DNA of 64,000 bases from an uncultured Bacteroidia bacterium (GTDB taxonomy: Bacteria > Bacteroidota > Bacteroidia > Bacteroidales > UBA932), in assembly GCA_902769525.1 (NCBI GenBank), contig CACXPG010000003.1, forward strand, positions 62,001-126,000. The letters are read 5' to 3'. A program made the position numbers and the translations under genes. Numbering within the stretch: the first letter of the stretch is position 1; each line of letters starts with the position of its first letter. The notes under the pieces are model-generated. The model searched no databases. It saw only the letters and a list, made by a program, of their open reading frames with translations, and was not told the origin of the DNA. Positions 1 through 7,250 of this stretch are shown one piece after another.

Positions 1-89
1 AGGAACCCACATACGCCCAGCTGAGGGAAATGTGCCTGACCGAATCAATCAGCGGCAAGCCGGAATCCAAGAAAAAAATCGGATACTAG
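1..89 (+). CDS. C-terminal fragment of an unidentified protein
   Basis: An open frame enters from the left edge and stops with TAG at 87-89, leaving 28 residues that end ...SKKKIGY. The 5' part lies outside the window. The fragment is too short to assign to a family. It lies immediately upstream of the promoter of the WYL regulator gene and on the same strand, and no terminator is visible between them. Confidence 0.45.
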   Translation, partial: EPTYAQLREMCLTESISGKPESKKKIGY

Positions 90-95
90 GAAAAT

Positions 96-133
96 ACTCT
101 GCCTGATTTTGGCAGAGTGATTTCTTATATTTG
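96..133 (+). promoter_or_regulatory. Promoter of the WYL gene with a palindromic operator
   Basis: A perfect palindrome ACTCTGCC-N7-GGCAGAGT spans 96-118. A TATATTTG -7 element follows at 126-133, with its TTTG beginning 19 bases after the first G of the right arm. The same half-site, 7-nt spacer and 19-base offset recur at 6245-6282. The palindrome occupies the place of the -33 element, so a bound protein should block RNA polymerase. The adjacent WYL protein is the natural candidate, by inference only. Confidence 0.7.
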
Positions 134-157
134 CAGCAGAAAAGAAAAAACACCGTT

Positions 158-1054
158 ATGGCACAGCATTACTTCAACCGGTACATTTGGCTTATAAGCA
201 CCATCAAGACAAACGGCCCTATAACGCTCAAAGAGCTTGACCGAAAGTGGAAGGAAAGCCCTTTGAATGAAACTCGCGACAACCTTTACGAACGTACTTT
301 CCACAACCACAGGATAGCCATTGAAGAAACCTTCGGCATAAAGATAAGCTACACTCGTCCAGATGGTTACTACATAGATACCGACAGCCTGGAAGACGGC
401 AGCTTCAGGGAATGGATGCTGGACTGCCTTCAGGTGAACAATCTTCTGGAAGAAAGTTCCGGCATTCACGACAAGATACTTCTGGAAAGCATTCCTTCCG
501 GCGGCAAATGGCTGAACATCATAATTGACGCCATCAAAGGCAAAAGGGCCATGGAGATGACATATATGAGTTTCTTTAAAGACTCCCCTTCTTCATTTAT
601 CGTTCACCCCTGGTGTCTGAAACTCTTCAAGCAACGGTGGTATATGCTGGCAAAAAGCGAATACTTCTCAACCCCGAGAATCTACTCTCTTGACAGAATC
701 CAAGAGCTGAGCTTAAGCAAAACCAAACTCCAGGTTCCCGAAAGGTTTAAGGCAGAGGAGTATTTCTCCCAATACTTCGGTATCATCGCCGATAAAGACA
801 TAAAGCCTTGCTTCATAGAAATATGGGCGGACTCAACTCAGGCCAAATATTTCAAGAGTCTGCCACTTCACAACTCGCAAACAATCAAGGAAGAAGATGA
901 GAACGGAACCGTTTTCCAGTACTATCTTGCCCCTACCTACGATTTCAAGCAAGAGATTCTACGTTACGGCTCAGGAGTGAAAGTTCTCTCGCCAAAGGAA
1001 TTCTTGGAAGAAATCAAGACGGAGATAGAAAACATGGCCCAGCTTTACAAGTAA
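158..1054 (+). CDS. WYL-domain transcriptional regulator
   Basis: A 298-residue protein of the WYL family, cytoplasmic ligand-sensing transcription factors. The N-terminal part (about residues 1-80) has the winged-helix layout of the group, with NLYERTFHNHR followed by IEETFGIKI. The central WYL domain (about 130-200) includes VHPWCLKLFKQRWYML and YSLDRIQEL. A WCX-like C-terminal domain follows. An in-frame TTG at 131 would extend the frame, but it lies inside the TATATTTG promoter element, so ATG 158 is the start, giving a leader of roughly 20 nt. Relatives such as BrxR and CapW repress phage-defence genes; others respond to DNA damage. The palindrome overlapping its own promoter suggests autoregulation, and the matching site at 6245 suggests the second target is the small-protein operon there. 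Confidence 0.85.
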   Translation: MAQHYFNRYIWLISTIKTNGPITLKELDRKWKESPLNETRDNLYERTFHNHRIAIEETFGIKISYTRPDGYYIDTDSLEDGSFREWMLDCLQVNNLLEESSGIHDKILLESIPSGGKWLNIIIDAIKGKRAMEMTYMSFFKDSPSSFIVHPWCLKLFKQRWYMLAKSEYFSTPRIYSLDRIQELSLSKTKLQVPERFKAEEYFSQYFGIIADKDIKPCFIEIWADSTQAKYFKSLPLHNSQTIKEEDENGTVFQYYLAPTYDFKQEILRYGSGVKVLSPKEFLEEIKTEIENMAQLYK

Positions 1055-1080
1055 ATTGCTGATTTCTCGGCAACTTTTCG

Positions 1081-1088
1081 TAACTTTG
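1081..1088 (+). promoter_or_regulatory. Putative -7 promoter element of the ogt-like gene
   Basis: TAACTTTG fits the Bacteroidota TAnnTTTG consensus and lies 20 bases before ATG 1109. No good TTTG at -33 is seen, so the promoter may be weak. Confidence 0.45.
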
Positions 1089-1108
1089 GGAAAATGGCAT
1101 AAAAGGCC

Positions 1109-1792
1109 ATGCCTGAAGTTATGCTTAAAGTCAAGATTTACGAATACGATTCCCCGTGCGGAAAACTCTATCTGGCCGCAAGAAAAGGGAGCCTTTGTCT
1201 GTGCGACTGGGCTAATAGCAAGAACCTTTCTGACACTCTTTCAAGACTTTCCAAAGCTCTGGAGGTTGAGTTCATTCTGCCCGAAACAGAAACAGTTAAA
1301 CCTCGCGCGGAGAAACCTTCCAAAGTAATTGTCTCGGCGATGAAACAGCTCGGCCAGTTCTTCAACGGAAGACGCAAGACTTTCAACATTCCTTATCAGA
1401 TGGCCGGCACTCCTTTCCAGAATGCCGTGTGGAAGAGTCTTCTGGATATTCCTTACGGAAAGAGCGTTTCGTATGCGGAGATCGCCGCAATGGCAGGCTA
1501 TCCTAAAGCCGTCAGGGCAGCGGCCAACGCCTGCGGAAACAATGCCCTGTCTGTCATTATCCCTTGCCACAGAGTCATAGGCAGCGACGACGGCCTTACC
1601 GGCTATGGCGGAGGACTGGGAGCGAAACGCTATCTGCTTGACCTTGAAAGCCCTCAGCAGCGGCTTCCGTTCAAGACTGTCACCAAGAAACCAGTAAAGA
1701 AGACAACAACGGCAAAAAAGCCCGCCAGAAAAACTGCCGGCAAAACGGTAAAGAAAACCCCTGCCAAGAAACCAGCTGCTAAAAAACAATAA
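1109..1792 (+). CDS. ogt: Methylated-DNA-protein cysteine methyltransferase with a basic tail
   Basis: Transfers the methyl group from O6-methylguanine to an active-site cysteine, repairing DNA in a suicide reaction. The catalytic motif IPCHRVIG is intact at about residue 152, preceded by the DNA-binding helix segment (YAEIAAMAGYPKAVRAAANA). The enzyme core covers roughly residues 1-180. Beyond it lies a 45-residue extension made almost entirely of Lys, Ala, Pro and Thr in KKP/KKT repeats, like a histone H1 or bacterial Hc1 tail. Typical Ogt proteins end near residue 170, so this tail is an addition, probably for non-specific DNA binding. The gene has its own TAACTTTG element and is followed after 20 nt by a secreted-protein gene. 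Confidence 0.88.
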   Translation: MPEVMLKVKIYEYDSPCGKLYLAARKGSLCLCDWANSKNLSDTLSRLSKALEVEFILPETETVKPRAEKPSKVIVSAMKQLGQFFNGRRKTFNIPYQMAGTPFQNAVWKSLLDIPYGKSVSYAEIAAMAGYPKAVRAAANACGNNALSVIIPCHRVIGSDDGLTGYGGGLGAKRYLLDLESPQQRLPFKTVTKKPVKKTTTAKKPARKTAGKTVKKTPAKKPAAKKQ

Positions 1793-1812
1793 TTTACAAC
1801 ACAACGTCCCCG

Positions 1813-2733
1813 ATGAAAAAGTTCCTGATCATTTTAGCCGCCGTCCTGGTCTGCACCAGCCTCCAAGCCCAGAACAACAAAAAGCAGCAGAGCAAAAAAG
1901 ACATAGAGTACGAGCAGAAGAAGGCTGACCTTTACAAGGAGTTTTCCGAGAACATGAAATGGCATAACGCCAATATTCCTCCCGACAGGAGAAGGGCGAT
2001 GAGAATCAAGAAGCAAATTGATTCGCTCACTAAAGTCAGGGACTCTTTGATGCACTATACCGACTCTCTGATAGCTGTCTCAGATAACAGACGGAACAGG
2101 ATAGACAACGATATAAATTCGCTGAGAAAAGATTACTACGCTGTTTCAGAAAGCGCTCTAGAAGATGTCTACAGAATCAAAAAAGGCCATACGAAAGATT
2201 CCCTGGAAAAGATTATGGCCAACCTCAGCCCAAAGGTCAGAAAAAGCAAAGCTGCCCAAAGGCTGAAAGAATACCTGACATCGAAACCGCTGAAGGCCGG
2301 AGACAAGATATGGGAATTCACCTGCTACACCCTGGACGGAAAGAAGTTCAACTGGAAAAGTGTACGAGGAAAAAGGATTTTCATAATACTTGACGGCTAC
2401 GACTGTATGGGCGGCCACATGAATCCGCTTGCCTTCAAGAACTATTACAAAAACAATATAGAACTGAAGGTCAAAGGGCGCCGCGATTTTGCTTTCATTC
2501 CTTTTTTCACCGAAGACAACTATGAGAAGTTCAAAAAGGACGCTGACTTCTACGGGATGACTGAATACAACCCGGTTTCCGATATGGAAGGCCAGCTTTC
2601 CAGGACAGATATAGTCTTTGATATTACCGCTACTCCTATGTGCGTGTACGTGGATGCAGACGGCACCATCAAAGCCATTACCGAAGGATTCGATCCGAAA
2701 GACCTTGAAAGGTTTGTTGAAGGGCTATGGTAG
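1813..2733 (+). CDS. Secreted thioredoxin-fold protein lacking a CXXC pair
   Basis: A 306-residue exported protein. Residues 1-20 are a signal peptide ending LQAQ. Residues 25-150 are charged and probably helical or coiled-coil. From about residue 160 the AhpC/TlpA-like pattern begins (LKAGDKIWEFTCYTLDGK), and the C-terminal part ATPMCVYVDADGTIKAI keeps the cis-proline-type loop of thioredoxin folds. Where the redox CXXC would be, the sequence reads DGYDCMGG with one cysteine, so disulfide exchange by the usual two-cysteine mechanism is unlikely. A peroxiredoxin-like or purely structural role is possible. Family membership is by pattern only. Confidence 0.6.
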   Translation: MKKFLIILAAVLVCTSLQAQNNKKQQSKKDIEYEQKKADLYKEFSENMKWHNANIPPDRRRAMRIKKQIDSLTKVRDSLMHYTDSLIAVSDNRRNRIDNDINSLRKDYYAVSESALEDVYRIKKGHTKDSLEKIMANLSPKVRKSKAAQRLKEYLTSKPLKAGDKIWEFTCYTLDGKKFNWKSVRGKRIFIILDGYDCMGGHMNPLAFKNYYKNNIELKVKGRRDFAFIPFFTEDNYEKFKKDADFYGMTEYNPVSDMEGQLSRTDIVFDITATPMCVYVDADGTIKAITEGFDPKDLERFVEGLW

Positions 2734-2842
2734 CTCATAACTATCTGTTTTTCAACAGCCCCCAAAATGCACCCTAGGAAAAGCGGAAAGTGCTTTTACA
2801 AAACAACTGATTACTAACCACTTATGAAATACCATAGCCACA

Positions 2843-3475
2843 ATGAAACACATATCGATTATATTTGCACTGTTGATTCTATCAACCGCAGCCTTATTCG
2901 CTCAACAAACTGAGAATAACAGCAAGATTATGGATAACACTGTTCTTAAAGCCCTCAAAGAAAGAAGGAGCGTACGTTCCTACAAGCCACAACAGATTAC
3001 AGATGAAGAACTGAAGGCTGTGCTGGAAGCCGGAACCTTTGCCCCCAACGGTATGGGAAAGCAGGATTCCTGGATTGTGGCGGTGCAGAACCCCCAGATA
3101 CTGGACCAGCTGAGAAGAATGAACGCCGAGATACTGGGCTCTACTTCAGACCCTTACTACGGAGCTCCGACAATCGTGCTGGTGTTCGGGTCAGACCCTA
3201 AGAAATGGGGAAACTCCATCCAGGACGGAAGTCTTGTGCTGGGCAACATGATGAACGCCGCCTATGCCATAGGACTTGGATCCTGCTGGATTAACCGCGA
3301 GATGCAGATGTTCTCTACAGAAGAAGGCAAAGCCCTGATGCGCAAGCTGGGCATTCCGGAAGAACTAATCCAGGCTGGTCTCACCGGCATAGGAGCGCTG
3401 GCTCTCGGATATCCGGAAGGAGAACCCCGCCCGGCAAAGCCGCGCAAGGAAAATTATTACCGCATTGTCAAATAG
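2843..3475 (+). CDS. Nitroreductase-family flavoprotein
   Basis: An FMN-dependent NAD(P)H oxidoreductase of the nitroreductase superfamily. Diagnostic segments are ERRSVRSYKPQQITDEEL (FMN phosphate site near the N-terminus), APNGMGKQ, and the C-terminal ALGYPEGEPRPAKPRK. From ATG 2843 the first 20 residues form a convincing signal peptide ending LFAQ, which would put a normally cytosolic enzyme in the periplasm. An internal ATG (MDNTVLKALKERRSVR, residue 30) would give a standard cytoplasmic enzyme of about 181 residues. Such extensions occur in Bacteroidota relatives. Its electron acceptor cannot be predicted. Confidence 0.8.
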   Translation: MKHISIIFALLILSTAALFAQQTENNSKIMDNTVLKALKERRSVRSYKPQQITDEELKAVLEAGTFAPNGMGKQDSWIVAVQNPQILDQLRRMNAEILGSTSDPYYGAPTIVLVFGSDPKKWGNSIQDGSLVLGNMMNAAYAIGLGSCWINREMQMFSTEEGKALMRKLGIPEELIQAGLTGIGALALGYPEGEPRPAKPRKENYYRIVK

Positions 3476-3595
3476 ATTGGCGTTCCCGAGAAGTCGCTGA
3501 CATTCAAATAAATACGAAAAAGACTGTATGCGATTTTACATATAGACAAACAAGCAACTAATTAAATATCAACAAAATAAACGCCACGCAATCCT

Positions 3596-5071
3596 ATGAA
3601 GAGATTACACCTTATGGAAGAGGCGGAGAGATGTCTGCTCTGCGAAAACGCTCCATGTACAAAAGCCTGCAAGACTGCTGATCCTGCAAGGGCCGTAAGG
3701 GCTATAAGGTTTGACAATGCCGCCAATTCCTGGAAGTGGCTCAAGGACGCTTCAGAAGAAGAACTTACGGCAGCAGAGAATGCCTGCATCCATTACGACA
3801 GGCCGATAAGACTCAGGGAAATATCCAAGATCATCGCTGAGAAATATGCTGACGCCAACAAGCAGGAAGTTAAAGACAAAAATACAAAAGAGCCGTCTCT
3901 GGAGATCGAGTTCTGTGGCCTGAAGTGCGAGAATCCGTTCTTTCTGGCTTCTTCCGCCATCTGCACCAACTACGAGATGGTAGCTGCGGCGTTCGAGGCC
4001 GGATGGGCAGGCGTGTTCTACAAGACCATCTGCCTGGAAGAGATCAAGGAAGTTTCTCCGCGATTCGATGTAGTCAAGAACCCTGACGGGTCATTTGCCG
4101 GTTTCCGCAATATGGAGCAGCTTTCTGAGAATCCGCCTGACGTTGATTTCCAGATACTTGCCAGCCTGAAACGCAATTATCCTTCGAAGATTGTGGTGGC
4201 TTCCATCATGGGCAGCACAGAGCAGCAGTGGATAGACTTGGCCATTATGGCCGAAGATGCCGGCGTGGATGCCATTGAGCTCAACTTCTCCTGTCCGCAG
4301 ATGAAGCTCTCCGGAATGGGAAGCGACGTGGGACAGAATTTAGAGCTTGTTGCAATCTACACATCATACGTGAAGAAAGCAGTAAGCATTCCTGTCATTC
4401 CAAAGATGACTCCTAACGTGGATTCTATGGGCAAATTTGCTGTCAGCGCCCATTTTGGCGGGGCGGACGGAATCTCTGCCATAAACACAATAAAGTCCGT
4501 GACAATGTCTACCGGCTCAGAGGTAGACGGCAAGAAGATTGTTTCCGGCTATTCCGGCAAGGCAGTAAAGCCTATCGCCCTGAGGTTCATACTTGAGATG
4601 GCGCAAAGCCAACTGATCAAGGACGCCCAGCTTTCCGGTATCGGCGGAATCAACACCTGGAGAGACGCTCTGGAATTCATCCAGTTAGGATGCCGCAACA
4701 CCCAGATTTGCACGGCCGTTATGGAATATGGCTACAGGATCATCGATGACCTTAAGGAAGGCCTTCAGACTTATATGGCACAAAGGGGTATTACCCGTCT
4801 GGATGAGATTGTGGGAGAGGAAATCAAGTCATTTGCAACCACCGCTCAGGTTGACCGTGACACCAAGGTGTTCCCGACCGTAGACCGCAGTGTGTGCATC
4901 GGTTGCGGAAGGTGCTACATATCCTGCCGCGACGGCGGACACCAGGCAATCTCATTCGGGGAAGACCGCCAGCCTAGGATAATCGGCCAGAAATGTGTGG
5001 GATGCCACCTGTGCCGTATGGTTTGCCCTACAGGTGCCATCGGCCAGGCCAAGCGTATACCAAAAAGATGA
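3596..5071 (+). CDS. preA: PreA-like dihydropyrimidine dehydrogenase subunit with extra N-terminal Fe-S module
   Basis: Reduces uracil and thymine to the 5,6-dihydro forms in reductive pyrimidine breakdown; cytoplasmic flavo-iron-sulfur protein. Three parts are visible. Residues 1-90 carry a cysteine cluster (RCLLCENAPCTKAC) resembling the DPYD/GltD N-terminal Fe-S domain that normally sits on the PreT partner. Residues about 100-420 are the FMN-binding dihydroorotate-dehydrogenase-like barrel (ELNFSCPQMKLSGMG, GISAINTIKS). The C-terminus has two 4Fe-4S motifs, CIGCGRCYISC and CVGCHLCRMVC. No preT gene is adjacent, so the electron donor is unknown. The gene ends 10 nt from a convergent gene with no clear terminator. 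Confidence 0.88.
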   Translation: MKRLHLMEEAERCLLCENAPCTKACKTADPARAVRAIRFDNAANSWKWLKDASEEELTAAENACIHYDRPIRLREISKIIAEKYADANKQEVKDKNTKEPSLEIEFCGLKCENPFFLASSAICTNYEMVAAAFEAGWAGVFYKTICLEEIKEVSPRFDVVKNPDGSFAGFRNMEQLSENPPDVDFQILASLKRNYPSKIVVASIMGSTEQQWIDLAIMAEDAGVDAIELNFSCPQMKLSGMGSDVGQNLELVAIYTSYVKKAVSIPVIPKMTPNVDSMGKFAVSAHFGGADGISAINTIKSVTMSTGSEVDGKKIVSGYSGKAVKPIALRFILEMAQSQLIKDAQLSGIGGINTWRDALEFIQLGCRNTQICTAVMEYGYRIIDDLKEGLQTYMAQRGITRLDEIVGEEIKSFATTAQVDRDTKVFPTVDRSVCIGCGRCYISCRDGGHQAISFGEDRQPRIIGQKCVGCHLCRMVCPTGAIGQAKRIPKR

Positions 5072-5081
5072 TGAGCAGAAA

Positions 5082-6194
5082 TCAGTCGTAGATTTCAAAC
5101 AGGCTCTTGAAGGTTTTAAGGTTCTTCCAGTAATTGCGGACTGTATTGTCAGTGCACATCTGGAGGCTTTTCTCCACAATCATCTGAGGTGCTCCCATAC
5201 CGAAACGCTCTCCAAGCTTTTCAAAGCCTGGCTTAAGGGCTGTTATAAGAACACTTTCTTTCTTGTTGGCTGTTGTCCAAGCCATGAACTCCTGCTGACG
5301 GCTTGCATACAGACGAAGAATGTCCAGAGCAATTCTCGGCTGAAGAGAAGCGTTGTTCTTGGCTTTCTTGACAAATGTGTTCCACTTCCTGAATACGTCC
5401 TTATCGCTGAGCGGAAGGGTTTCCAGGGAATAAAGCTCCTCGGCAAGCTGGTTGACTTCAGGCTTTCCTTTCTGTATGCGTGAAGCCTCCGAGATGATTC
5501 CCTTGTCCGAGATATTGAAAACTGTTGTGTCATACCACTTGTCGCTCTTGTCGTCCGCAGTCTTGAAGTAGTAATAATCTGTTTTCGTGAGTGTTTTGTT
5601 GTCTTCTGAGAACTTCATGCTTCCGCCTCCGAAATTATCCCTTGGCGAGTAGTTTCCGTGTGGCTCTGTCTTGAGTATCTCGTTCATCCACTCGCCATGT
5701 CCGGCATAGAACGCATCTATCAGATTGCCTTTATGGTCAAAAGTAGCATAGTAATGATTTATCTGCTGATAGCCGTCTACTCCCCATCCCCAGACACGAT
5801 ATGCTACAATGCAGCCGAAATCTGTCGGAATAACTCCATACTTCAGAATCTGGTCTGCAGTCTGCACTCTAAAGCTGCCATCCTCTATAGTAAACTCTCC
5901 GGTAATTTTCTGGAAAACAGCCTCTTCTTCTTTGCACAGGCTCAGTTTAGGTTCATAGTGCCAGTCACTTCCAAAATTATAGTAACGGCGGTTGTAAGCC
6001 AAGCCGTCGTTCATGCAGATGCCAGCTCCCTGTACCCGGCTCTCGTCCCTCTCGTGCATAGGACGGGTGAACACCGGATTATCGTTCATCGGATCTATTT
6101 TGTAACGCTTCAGCCAGGTACGGCCCTCATCCTGAGCCTTCATCATCCCGAAGAAAGCCAAAGAAAACAAAATGCTCATAAGAATCCTTTTCAT
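5082..6194 (-). CDS. Secreted protein of unknown function
   Basis: A 370-residue protein with a clear signal peptide (residues 1-20, ending MKAQ), predicted to be periplasmic or surface-associated. The mature part has many Tyr, Trp and Asp residues and segments such as IVAYRVWGWGVDGY and FDHKGNLIDAFYAGHGEW that suggest a beta-rich sensor-like domain, then a helical C-terminal third. No lipobox or membrane anchor is seen. I do not recognise the family. It is transcribed toward preA and starts about 100 bases from the divergent WYL-type operator, so it could share that control region, though no matching -7 element faces it. Confidence 0.75.
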   Translation of the reverse strand: MKRILMSILFSLAFFGMMKAQDEGRTWLKRYKIDPMNDNPVFTRPMHERDESRVQGAGICMNDGLAYNRRYYNFGSDWHYEPKLSLCKEEEAVFQKITGEFTIEDGSFRVQTADQILKYGVIPTDFGCIVAYRVWGWGVDGYQQINHYYATFDHKGNLIDAFYAGHGEWMNEILKTEPHGNYSPRDNFGGGSMKFSEDNKTLTKTDYYYFKTADDKSDKWYDTTVFNISDKGIISEASRIQKGKPEVNQLAEELYSLETLPLSDKDVFRKWNTFVKKAKNNASLQPRIALDILRLYASRQQEFMAWTTANKKESVLITALKPGFEKLGERFGMGAPQMIVEKSLQMCTDNTVRNYWKNLKTFKSLFEIYD

Positions 6195-6244
6195 AACAAA
6201 ACGTTTTTTTCAATGCTTAAAGTTAAGAAAAAAAATCTGAAAAC

Positions 6245-6282
6245 ACTCTGCCCGTTTTTGGCAGACACGGCCTTTTTCTTTG
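6245..6282 (+). promoter_or_regulatory. Second copy of the WYL-type operator and promoter
   Basis: ACTCTGCC-N7-GGCAGACA (6245-6267) repeats the left half-site of 96-103 exactly and keeps 6 bp of the right arm. TTTG of the -7 region (6279-6282) begins 19 bases after the first G of the right arm, as at the first site. The -7 element is poorer (TTTCTTTG), which would suit a promoter needing derepression or activation. It precedes the operon of small proteins at 6312-7250. Confidence 0.65.
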
Positions 6283-6311: not shown

Positions 6312-6464
6312 ATGAACGCACTTGACAAAATCACAAACGAACTACCTGCCCCTGTTGGCCAGATTGTAAACATGGCTGCCAACGTCGGAATGAAGGCCGG
6401 AACAGCAATCGGCCAAGAAATATCTAATTGGATAGATGAACTCTTCGGCGATGATAAAAACTGA
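6312..6464 (+). CDS. 50-residue small protein, first gene of the WYL-type operon
   Basis: ATG 6312 to TGA 6464 encodes MNALDKITNELPAPVGQI... with a mildly amphipathic middle (VNMAANVGMKAGTAIG) and an acidic end (DELFGDDKN). There is no signal peptide. The start lies about 30 bases after the -7 element of the operator-bearing promoter. No family is recognised. Evidence that it is real: position just behind a promoter, normal codon use, and a same-strand row of further small genes. Confidence 0.55.
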   Translation: MNALDKITNELPAPVGQIVNMAANVGMKAGTAIGQEISNWIDELFGDDKN

Positions 6465-6532: not shown

Positions 6533-6655
6533 ATGAAAGACATCCTTAAAATTTCAGTAAAGGTTTTTCTTGGCATAGCTGCTCTTGCTGCAGGAGGAAC
6601 ACTCATCAAGAATGCCGCTAAAGATGCCAACCGTCTTAAGGGGAAAGCCAGCTAA
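6533..6655 (+). CDS. 40-residue hydrophobic small protein
   Basis: ATG 6533 to TAA 6655. The product has one hydrophobic helix (VFLGIAALAAGGTLI) followed by a basic end (NRLKGKAS), so it is probably a single-pass inner-membrane peptide. It is the second gene of the small-protein operon under the 6245 promoter. The make-up fits membrane stress peptides or small membrane toxins, but nothing in the sequence decides this. Confidence 0.5.
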   Translation: MKDILKISVKVFLGIAALAAGGTLIKNAAKDANRLKGKAS

Positions 6656-6703: not shown

Positions 6704-6898
6704 ATGTTTAGAGGATTCGTAAATGCTACCTGTCAGAACTGCGGTCACAAGTTCACTGCGCCTGACATAGAGAAGAACGCCACAGTCTTCTCGGAACCCG
6801 TCAGATGCCCACGTTGCGGCAAAATGGTACAGGTCGGAGTAGGCTCTGGCAAAAGTTTCTTCGACTACATGCTCGGAAAGCTATTCAAATCTTTATAG
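6704..6898 (+). CDS. Small zinc-ribbon protein
   Basis: A 64-residue protein with two CxxC knuckles (CQNC at about residue 10 and CPRC at about residue 37), the spacing of a zinc-ribbon fold like those in zinc-ribbon/FmdB-type proteins. The C-terminus (KSFFDYMLGKLFKSL) is amphipathic. No enzymatic residues are visible. It is third in the row of small genes behind the WYL-type promoter and is followed 4 nt later by a membrane-protein gene, so the two are probably translated together. Confidence 0.75.
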   Translation: MFRGFVNATCQNCGHKFTAPDIEKNATVFSEPVRCPRCGKMVQVGVGSGKSFFDYMLGKLFKSL

Positions 6899-6902
6899 CC
6901 CT

Positions 6903-7250
6903 ATGAAAACAAAACAGAATTCCATTTCTACGGTCATCTGGATCCTAGGGATATCCATCGCGATATCTATTGTCTTCCTGATTATAGCAAAAGTCTTTGC
7001 AGATAATTGGGACGCAGCCATAACAGTCCAGAATTCAGCCGTTTACAGTTATGCTCACTCCAGGACTCTCTATCCGTTTCTGACCTGGAGCATTGCCGGA
7101 GCGCTGATGCTTGCCTCAGCCATTGCCGTCATCTACAGCCACCGCAAGGCTTCCCGCACGGCAATCATTGCTGTCTTGTACCTGGCATCAGCTATCCTGG
7201 TTACTAAATCCGCCGCTCTTTGCTACTGCGCAACACAACTGAACCTGTAG
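6903..7250 (+). CDS. Three-helix small membrane protein
   Basis: A 115-residue integral membrane protein with hydrophobic segments at about residues 10-30, 60-78 and 85-110. It has no conserved catalytic motif and I do not recognise a family. It starts 4 nt after the zinc-ribbon gene and is the last gene before a strong intrinsic terminator at 7282, which marks the end of the putative WYL-controlled operon. Confidence 0.7.
   Translation: MKTKQNSISTVIWILGISIAISIVFLIIAKVFADNWDAAITVQNSAVYSYAHSRTLYPFLTWSIAGALMLASAIAVIYSHRKASRTAIIAVLYLASAILVTKSAALCYCATQLNL

What the first reader, a model, noticed from the sequence alone, without database searches (positions are those of the whole stretch)
96..6282. 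The same palindrome with the same geometry at two promoters 6 kb apart, one belonging to a WYL regulator
ACTCTGCC-N7-GGCAGAGT at 96-118 and ACTCTGCC-N7-GGCAGACA at 6245-6267. In both cases TTTG of the -7 element begins 19 bases after the first G of the right arm. One site lies before the WYL regulator gene, the other before four small genes. Identical half-site, spacer and offset by chance is very unlikely. This suggests a self-regulating WYL protein with a local target operon.
Basis: partly seen in the sequence, partly recalled or inferred. Interest (0 to 1): 0.7.

Follow-up and report, generated by a model that had tools for sequence, protein, structure and literature searches.

The report
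Shared switch of a local WYL regulon
The two matching palindromes are two copies of a promoter switch, set at a fixed distance from the transcription start signal, that many gut and rumen Bacteroidales carry in front of a WYL regulator gene and of several neighbouring repair-like and small unknown genes, so the regulator probably turns on its own local gene neighbourhood, perhaps in answer to nucleic-acid damage.

Summary
In detail: both palindromes stand at the stated places with TTTG 19 bases after the first G of the right arm. They are the only exact CTCTGCC-N7-GGCAGA places in the 2.23-Mb genome. Weaker copies with the same offset lie at four more promoters just upstream of the window, making six boxed promoters within 16 kb around the WYL gene. 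All seven orthologues (64-98% identity) keep a box; one keeps it through matching changes in both arms. A GTDB-wide exact scan found 77 loci; 37 also encode a WYL protein of this family, 35 on the same strand. Upstream of non-redundant WYL genes, palindromes are enriched only when centred about 22.5 bases before TTTG. Box promoters lack the usual -33 TTG and often the A of TAnnTTTG. The N7 spacer and the position match the Caulobacter WYL activator DriD, also the nearest solved structure. Best reading: a DriD-like WYL activator with a box at its own promoter, switching on a local regulon (AAA ATPase, exonuclease, PD-(D/E)XK protein, small unknown genes; elsewhere DnaE, UvrD, RNA-repair-type HAD). 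Binding, direction of regulation and signal are inferred. New variant of a known kind.

The parts
1..89 (+). 3' end of the AAA ATPase gene (C3:60407-62089), which has its own box upstream of the window (C3:60274)
96..118 (+). WYL box 1, ACTCTGCC-N7-GGCAGAGT, perfect 8-bp arms
   Evidence: conserved in 7 orthologous loci
126..133 (+). -7 element TATATTTG; TTTG 19 bases after the first G of the right arm
   Evidence: offset statistics
158..1054 (+). WYL-WCX transcription regulator, 298 aa, winged HTH at the N-terminus
   Evidence: Pfam WYL 3.7e-13 and WCX 3.4e-11; model pLDDT 86.4; DriD best fold match
6245..6267 (+). WYL box 2, ACTCTGCC-N7-GGCAGACA
   Evidence: diverged box with the same offset before the related operon of G028
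6275..6282 (+). degenerate -7 element TTTCTTTG (no A), TTTG 19 bases after the first G of the right arm
6312..6464 (+). small gene 1, 50 aa, relatives behind boxes in 5 loci
6533..6655 (+). small gene 2, 40 aa, unknown
   Evidence: no family
6704..6898 (+). small gene 3, 64 aa, two CxxC pairs, zinc-ribbon-like; homologues found only in G027 (two) and G028 among 60 relatives
6903..7250 (+). small gene 4, 115 aa, no family over a cut-off; hydrophobic stretches by eye

Best explanation
The palindrome is the operator ('WYL box') of the WYL regulator encoded at 158-1054, acting as a homodimer. It sits at a fixed place over the -33 region of each target promoter, its centre about 19 bp before the -12 position, as for the Caulobacter WYL activator DriD. 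These promoters are weak by themselves (no -33 TTG, often no A in TAnnTTTG). When the WYL domain is loaded with its ligand (single-stranded nucleic acid by analogy with DriD, PafBC and SiwR), the dimer binds the box and holds RNA polymerase on the poor promoter, switching on its own gene and the neighbouring boxed operons: here AAA ATPase, DEDDh exonuclease, PD-(D/E)XK protein, an unknown gene and the four small genes. Shown here: the boxes, their rigid geometry, their link to WYL genes across Bacteroidales, and the DriD-like fold. Inferred: direct binding, homodimer, activation rather than repression, the ligand, and a role in DNA or RNA damage or phage stress.
For: Only local copies in the own genome. 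Box kept before the WYL gene in all 8 orthologues, including changed flanks and matching changes in both arms. 77 exact loci, 37 with a WYL protein of this family, 35 co-oriented; 21 of 24 further box genomes have the gene, 12 on the same contig and strand, against 47 of 149 at random (Fisher p 2e-7). Centre of the palindrome fixed relative to TTTG in non-redundant WYL upstream regions. Box promoters lack the -33 TTG (2 of 95 against 52 of 261) and mostly the A of TAnnTTTG (17 of 58 have it). DriD is the best match by fold and, with PafBC, by profile, well ahead of the repressors CapW and BrxR. DriD uses an N7 palindrome over -35 at one distance from -10 on poor promoters (PMC12340889). Paralogues on one contig have their own half-sites.
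Against: No binding or expression data. The register of the Caulobacter -10 elements is my own reading. Of the paired arginines that bind ssDNA in PafB only the one in LDR is kept in the window protein; the other position reads S (alignment, residues), so ssDNA as ligand is unsure. [quoted passage not shown] About 40 of 55 non-redundant WYL genes have no clear box of their own. Agreement of half-site and WYL tree is only partial (11 changes among 28 rows).
Confidence: 0.68

Rival explanations
1. The WYL protein binds the box but as a repressor, like CapW or BrxR; ligand binding releases it and the operons are expressed.
For: The box overlaps the -33 region, where a bound dimer could shut out polymerase; homodimeric WYL repressors bind palindromes next to their own operons (PMC9122588).
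Against: A repressor needs no rigid offset and would be expected on good promoters, but the offset is fixed and the promoters are degenerate. CapW sites overlap -10 instead. Fold and profile are nearer to DriD and PafBC.
Confidence: 0.22
2. Another protein reads the box: the AAA ATPase that accompanies the WYL gene, or the sigma-70-like factor of the island, for which the right arm and TTTG would be the promoter elements.
For: The AAA ATPase follows a box in as many loci (27) as the WYL gene (26); a sigma-like gene lies in the island of G000, G027 and G011.
Against: The sigma-like gene is absent from nearly all other boxed loci fetched. A full two-fold palindrome with matching changes in both arms is unlike a sigma promoter. 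The geometry and, in a distant homologue (L054), the half-site agree with the WYL activator DriD.
Confidence: 0.08
3. Chance similarity or a general promoter element of this lineage.
For: Within the window alone the evidence is modest: one shuffle in 100 also gave two matches.
Against: Only local copies in the own genome; ordinary promoters of this genome show no GGCA at this place; strong link with WYL genes across the order.
Confidence: 0.02

Closest known systems
DriD of Caulobacter crescentus (homodimeric WYL activator responding to ssDNA; PMC12340889)
   Same: wHTH, linker helices, WYL and WCX; palindrome with N7 spacer; site over the -35 region at one distance from -10; poor core promoters; several target promoters
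   Different: Other phylum, other half-site (ATACGAC against CTCTGCC), Bacteroidota -7 element; targets clustered around the regulator; [quoted passage not shown] ligand unknown here
SiwR of Mycobacterium smegmatis (PMC10693628)
   Same: WYL activator, palindrome between -35 and -10, controls adjacent genes under genotoxic stress
   Different: One adjacent operon of DinB-like genes; 19-bp imperfect palindrome near -26; no multi-operon island
PafBC of mycobacteria (PMC11804915, PMC6789036)
   Same: WYL activator at promoters without a normal -35; best sequence profile match
   Different: Heterodimer, one half-site near -26 (-24), sigma adaptation, genome-wide regulon
CapW and BrxR (PMC9122588, PMC9122601, PMC9122589)
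   Same: Homodimeric wHTH-WYL-WCX regulators binding palindromes beside the genes they control
   Different: Repressors of one defence system each; CapW sites overlap -10; weaker sequence and structure match

Membership tests
DriD-type WYL activators | wHTH, linker helices, WYL and WCX in one chain | tested here: met
   Pfam WYL and WCX; model and fold matches, DriD first
DriD-type WYL activators | palindromic site with N7 spacer at a fixed distance from -10, over -35 | tested here: met
   distance 15 bp from right arm to -12 as I read the DriD promoters, register not proved
DriD-type WYL activators | poor -35 and -10 elements at target promoters | tested here: met
DriD-type WYL activators | binds ssDNA in the WYL domain | tested here: inconclusive
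   WYL tyrosine and LDR arginine invariant, the other arginine position of the PafB pair reads S in the window protein
DriD-type WYL activators | activates transcription | not testable with these tools
   needs expression data
CapW/BrxR-type WYL repressors | site overlapping the -10 element (CapW) | tested here: not met
   box ends at 118, 7 bases before the -7 element at 126-133
CapW/BrxR-type WYL repressors | represses its operon | not testable with these tools
   needs expression data
PafBC | two different WYL subunits encoded side by side | tested here: not met
   no second WYL gene beside this one in the own genome: five WYL matches on C2, C3, C4 and C16, one of them on C3
Promoter of an alternative sigma factor | sigma gene present wherever the box is | tested here: not met
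   sigma-like gene found only in the loci of G000, G027 and G011, plus one weak match in G011; whole genomes were not searched for it

The most novel reading that the evidence does not exclude
Bacteroidales possess a widespread but local stress response: a WYL activator and an AAA ATPase as core, around which mostly co-oriented operons accumulate, each with its own copy of a position-locked WYL box, paralogous islands in one genome being kept apart by different half-sites. Repair and defence-like effectors (DnaE, UvrD, exonuclease, RNA-repair HAD, GmrSD, MoxR) would be induced together by single-stranded nucleic acid.
Probability: 0.4. Interest if true: 0.8.

Novelty: new variant of a known kind. 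Interest (0 to 1): 0.62.

Why it matters
The literature searched here describes no WYL activator regulon in Bacteroidota. A fixed, searchable promoter box gives a way to find island genes and to predict from sequence alone which small unknown genes are switched on together. The same geometry as DriD in another phylum would suggest that position-locked activation is a general property of homodimeric WYL activators, and paralogous islands with different half-sites offer a natural test of how such specificity evolves.

Tried and rejected
Right arm as the normal -33 element: rejected; ordinary promoters of this genome show no GGCA there, and the TTG inside the box starts 17 bases before TAnnTTTG, away from the ordinary peak at 22-24. 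Alternative sigma factor: gene absent from most boxed loci. A strict pattern with free offset over 393 Bacteroidales genomes gave only 9 hits in 7 genomes, too few for a distribution, though 6 of 9 fit offset 19 (one of them is reported at an earlier TTTG and fits); the WYL-anchored grid replaced it. Automatic scoring of the Caulobacter -10 elements did not single out a register. Half-site against WYL tree: partial agreement only. IMG/VR: one exact match, no clear gene behind it. PADLOC hits of island proteins are to candidate families and to general AAA, exonuclease or WYL models, not to a complete defence system. In Segatella copri DSM 18205 one WYL gene with a perfect box is split by an IS607-type insertion, so that strain is a poor test host for that copy.

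Full report
1. Check. In the genome (2.23 Mb, 23 contigs; window = C3:62001-126000) the exact core CTCTGCC-N7-GGCAGA is found only at these two places. Site 1 lies before a 298-aa WYL protein (WYL and WCX domains), site 2 before four small genes without a family over a cut-off.

2. More than two. A relaxed scan of the neighbourhood showed further copies with the same 19-base offset: C3:52709 (before a PD-(D/E)XK protein), 57115 on the minus strand (before an unknown protein), 59164 (before a DEDDh exonuclease), 60274 (before an AAA ATPase), 62096 (WYL) and 68245 (small genes). A profile of 21 such sites from seven genomes was searched over 39 genomes of the genus. In the own genome all strong hits lie in these 16 kb. 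That is partly circular, because these sites are in the profile; but no comparable site appears elsewhere in that genome. In G011 seven sites stand in 11 kb. Genomes without the orthologue mostly have no strong hit; exceptions are G017, G018, G020 and G034, the last two beside WYL paralogues.

3. Conservation. All eight orthologues (the window's own included; 64-98% identity for the others) have a box at the same offset. In G028 and G032 the DNA upstream of the box differs from that of G000, yet the box is kept. In G024 both arms have changed together (CTGTGCC/GGCACAG). The related small-gene operon of G028 has a diverged box with the same offset.

4. Order-wide test. An exact scan of 84,980 species genomes for TCTGCC-N5-TTGGCAGA-N13-TTTG gave 77 loci, against about 7 expected in random sequence (my estimate); 67 are from Bacteroidota by their titles. 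Of the 77 loci, 37 encode a WYL protein of this family within the stretch fetched (at most 8 kb), 35 on the same strand; none of the ten other loci does. Of 24 Bacteroidales genomes whose locus lacked it, 21 have the gene, 12 of them on the same contig as the box, co-oriented and within about 21 kb. Of 149 Bacteroidales genomes drawn evenly, 47 have it; Fisher p = 2e-7 (the two searches used different E-value limits, but the 21 all have a match at 1e-60 or better).

5. Geometry. In the upstream DNA of 55 non-redundant WYL genes, palindromes of at least 6 of 8 pairs were counted over a grid of spacers and offsets. Only combinations that put the palindrome centre about 22.5 bases before TTTG stand out (12-20 genes; elsewhere about 1). 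Four of the 15 genes at N7/19 were found through this very box, the others through protein searches or another site. Over all fetched loci 95 distinct promoters have the box at 19 and 1-8 at any other offset (many of these loci were chosen for 19, so this count is biased).

6. Promoter quality. Ordinary promoters in the same loci have a TTG starting 22-24 bases before TAnnTTTG in about 52 of 261, box promoters in 2 of 95. In the exact-scan sites only 17 of 58 have the A of TAnnTTTG. Such promoters should need help.

7. The protein. The AlphaFold model (pLDDT 86.4) has a winged HTH, linker helices, WYL and WCX. DriD is the best solved match by Foldseek and by VIA-align (Z 18.1 for the core, 17.6 for the whole chain; BrxR 12.9, PafBC 12.4, CapW 12.2). 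By profile PafBC (9e-21) and DriD (1.6e-16, whole WYL-WCX) are far ahead of CapW (4e-4) and BrxR (1.3e-3). DriD binds ATACGAC-N7-GTCGTAT over -35, at one distance from -10 in its promoters, which are poor (PMC12340889). Aligning the three published DriD promoters by their shared G-N-C-A-A, I count 15 bp from the first base of the right arm to -12; here it is also 15 (111 to 126). This register is my reading; automatic scoring did not prove it. A distant homologue (L054) has CCACGAC-N7-GTCGTGG, a DriD-like half-site, at the same offset.

8. The regulon. Behind boxes the commonest genes are the AAA ATPase (27 loci), the WYL gene (26), an unknown family of about 210-250 aa (11), the DEDDh exonuclease (6), a 207-aa unknown family (6) and relatives of the 50-aa small protein (5). 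Others carry DnaE, UvrD, gyrase-B-like, FtsZ-like, RNA-repair HAD, PLD, GmrSD, RecA/KaiC-like and MoxR domains. RtcB and a sigma-like gene lie inside the own island, but no box was found directly before them. This looks like nucleic-acid repair or conflict; a damage or phage signal is plausible but not shown.

9. Specificity. On one contig of G011 two WYL paralogues about 80 kb apart each have their own boxes, GGCAGAG-like in one and TGCCGAAG-like in the other; G027 shows the same. TGCCGA is confined to one well-supported WYL clade, but other types change more often.

10. Known or new. Homodimeric WYL activators are known (DriD, SiwR: PMC12340889, PMC10693628), as are WYL repressors (CapW, BrxR). 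No paper found in the library describes a WYL activator regulon or box in Bacteroidota; subscription papers are mostly not held. The finding is real and its reading is supported and extended: a local, multi-operon regulon of a DriD-like WYL activator with a box at its own promoter. Direct binding, sign and ligand remain to be tested.

Noticed in passing
window 1109-1792: O6-methylguanine-DNA methyltransferase gene 54 bases behind the WYL gene, possibly in its operon; its C-terminus is a long Lys/Ala/Pro-rich, histone-H1-like tail.
   Followed up: no
L096 7285-9158 (C3:57285-59158): A sigma-70-like ORF overlaps the start of an RtcB RNA ligase ORF by about 130 bases in another frame; the end of one ORF may be a frameshift or the true start of RtcB may lie further in.
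   Followed up: no
L096 2777-4618 (C3:52777-54618): The PD-(D/E)XK protein (613 aa) contains its C-terminal half twice (tandem repeat of the part beginning ALIQY.DYL.GM.GEREKE).
   Followed up: no
L201 5460-6404: A box stands before an FtsZ/tubulin-like GTPase of 315 aa, an unusual member of such a regulon (Pfam Tubulin 6e-12).
   Followed up: partly
L266 404-3788 (Segatella copri DSM 18205, NZ_CP085933.1): A WYL gene with a perfect palindrome (ACTCCGCA-N7-TGCGGAGT) at the same offset is split by an IS607-type TnpB insertion; an intact second WYL gene lies 10 kb on without a clear box.
   Followed up: partly
L100 7062-18218 (G011:C21:178062-189218): Seven boxed promoters in 11 kb, all on the strand of the WYL gene; with the co-orientation in other genomes this suggests that operons are added to such islands in one direction.
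   Followed up: partly
L099 2308 and L202 5284-6282 (G027:C16): A second copy of the small-gene operon stands beside a different WYL paralogue, with a TGCCGA-type right arm, so the small genes travel with WYL genes.
   Followed up: partly
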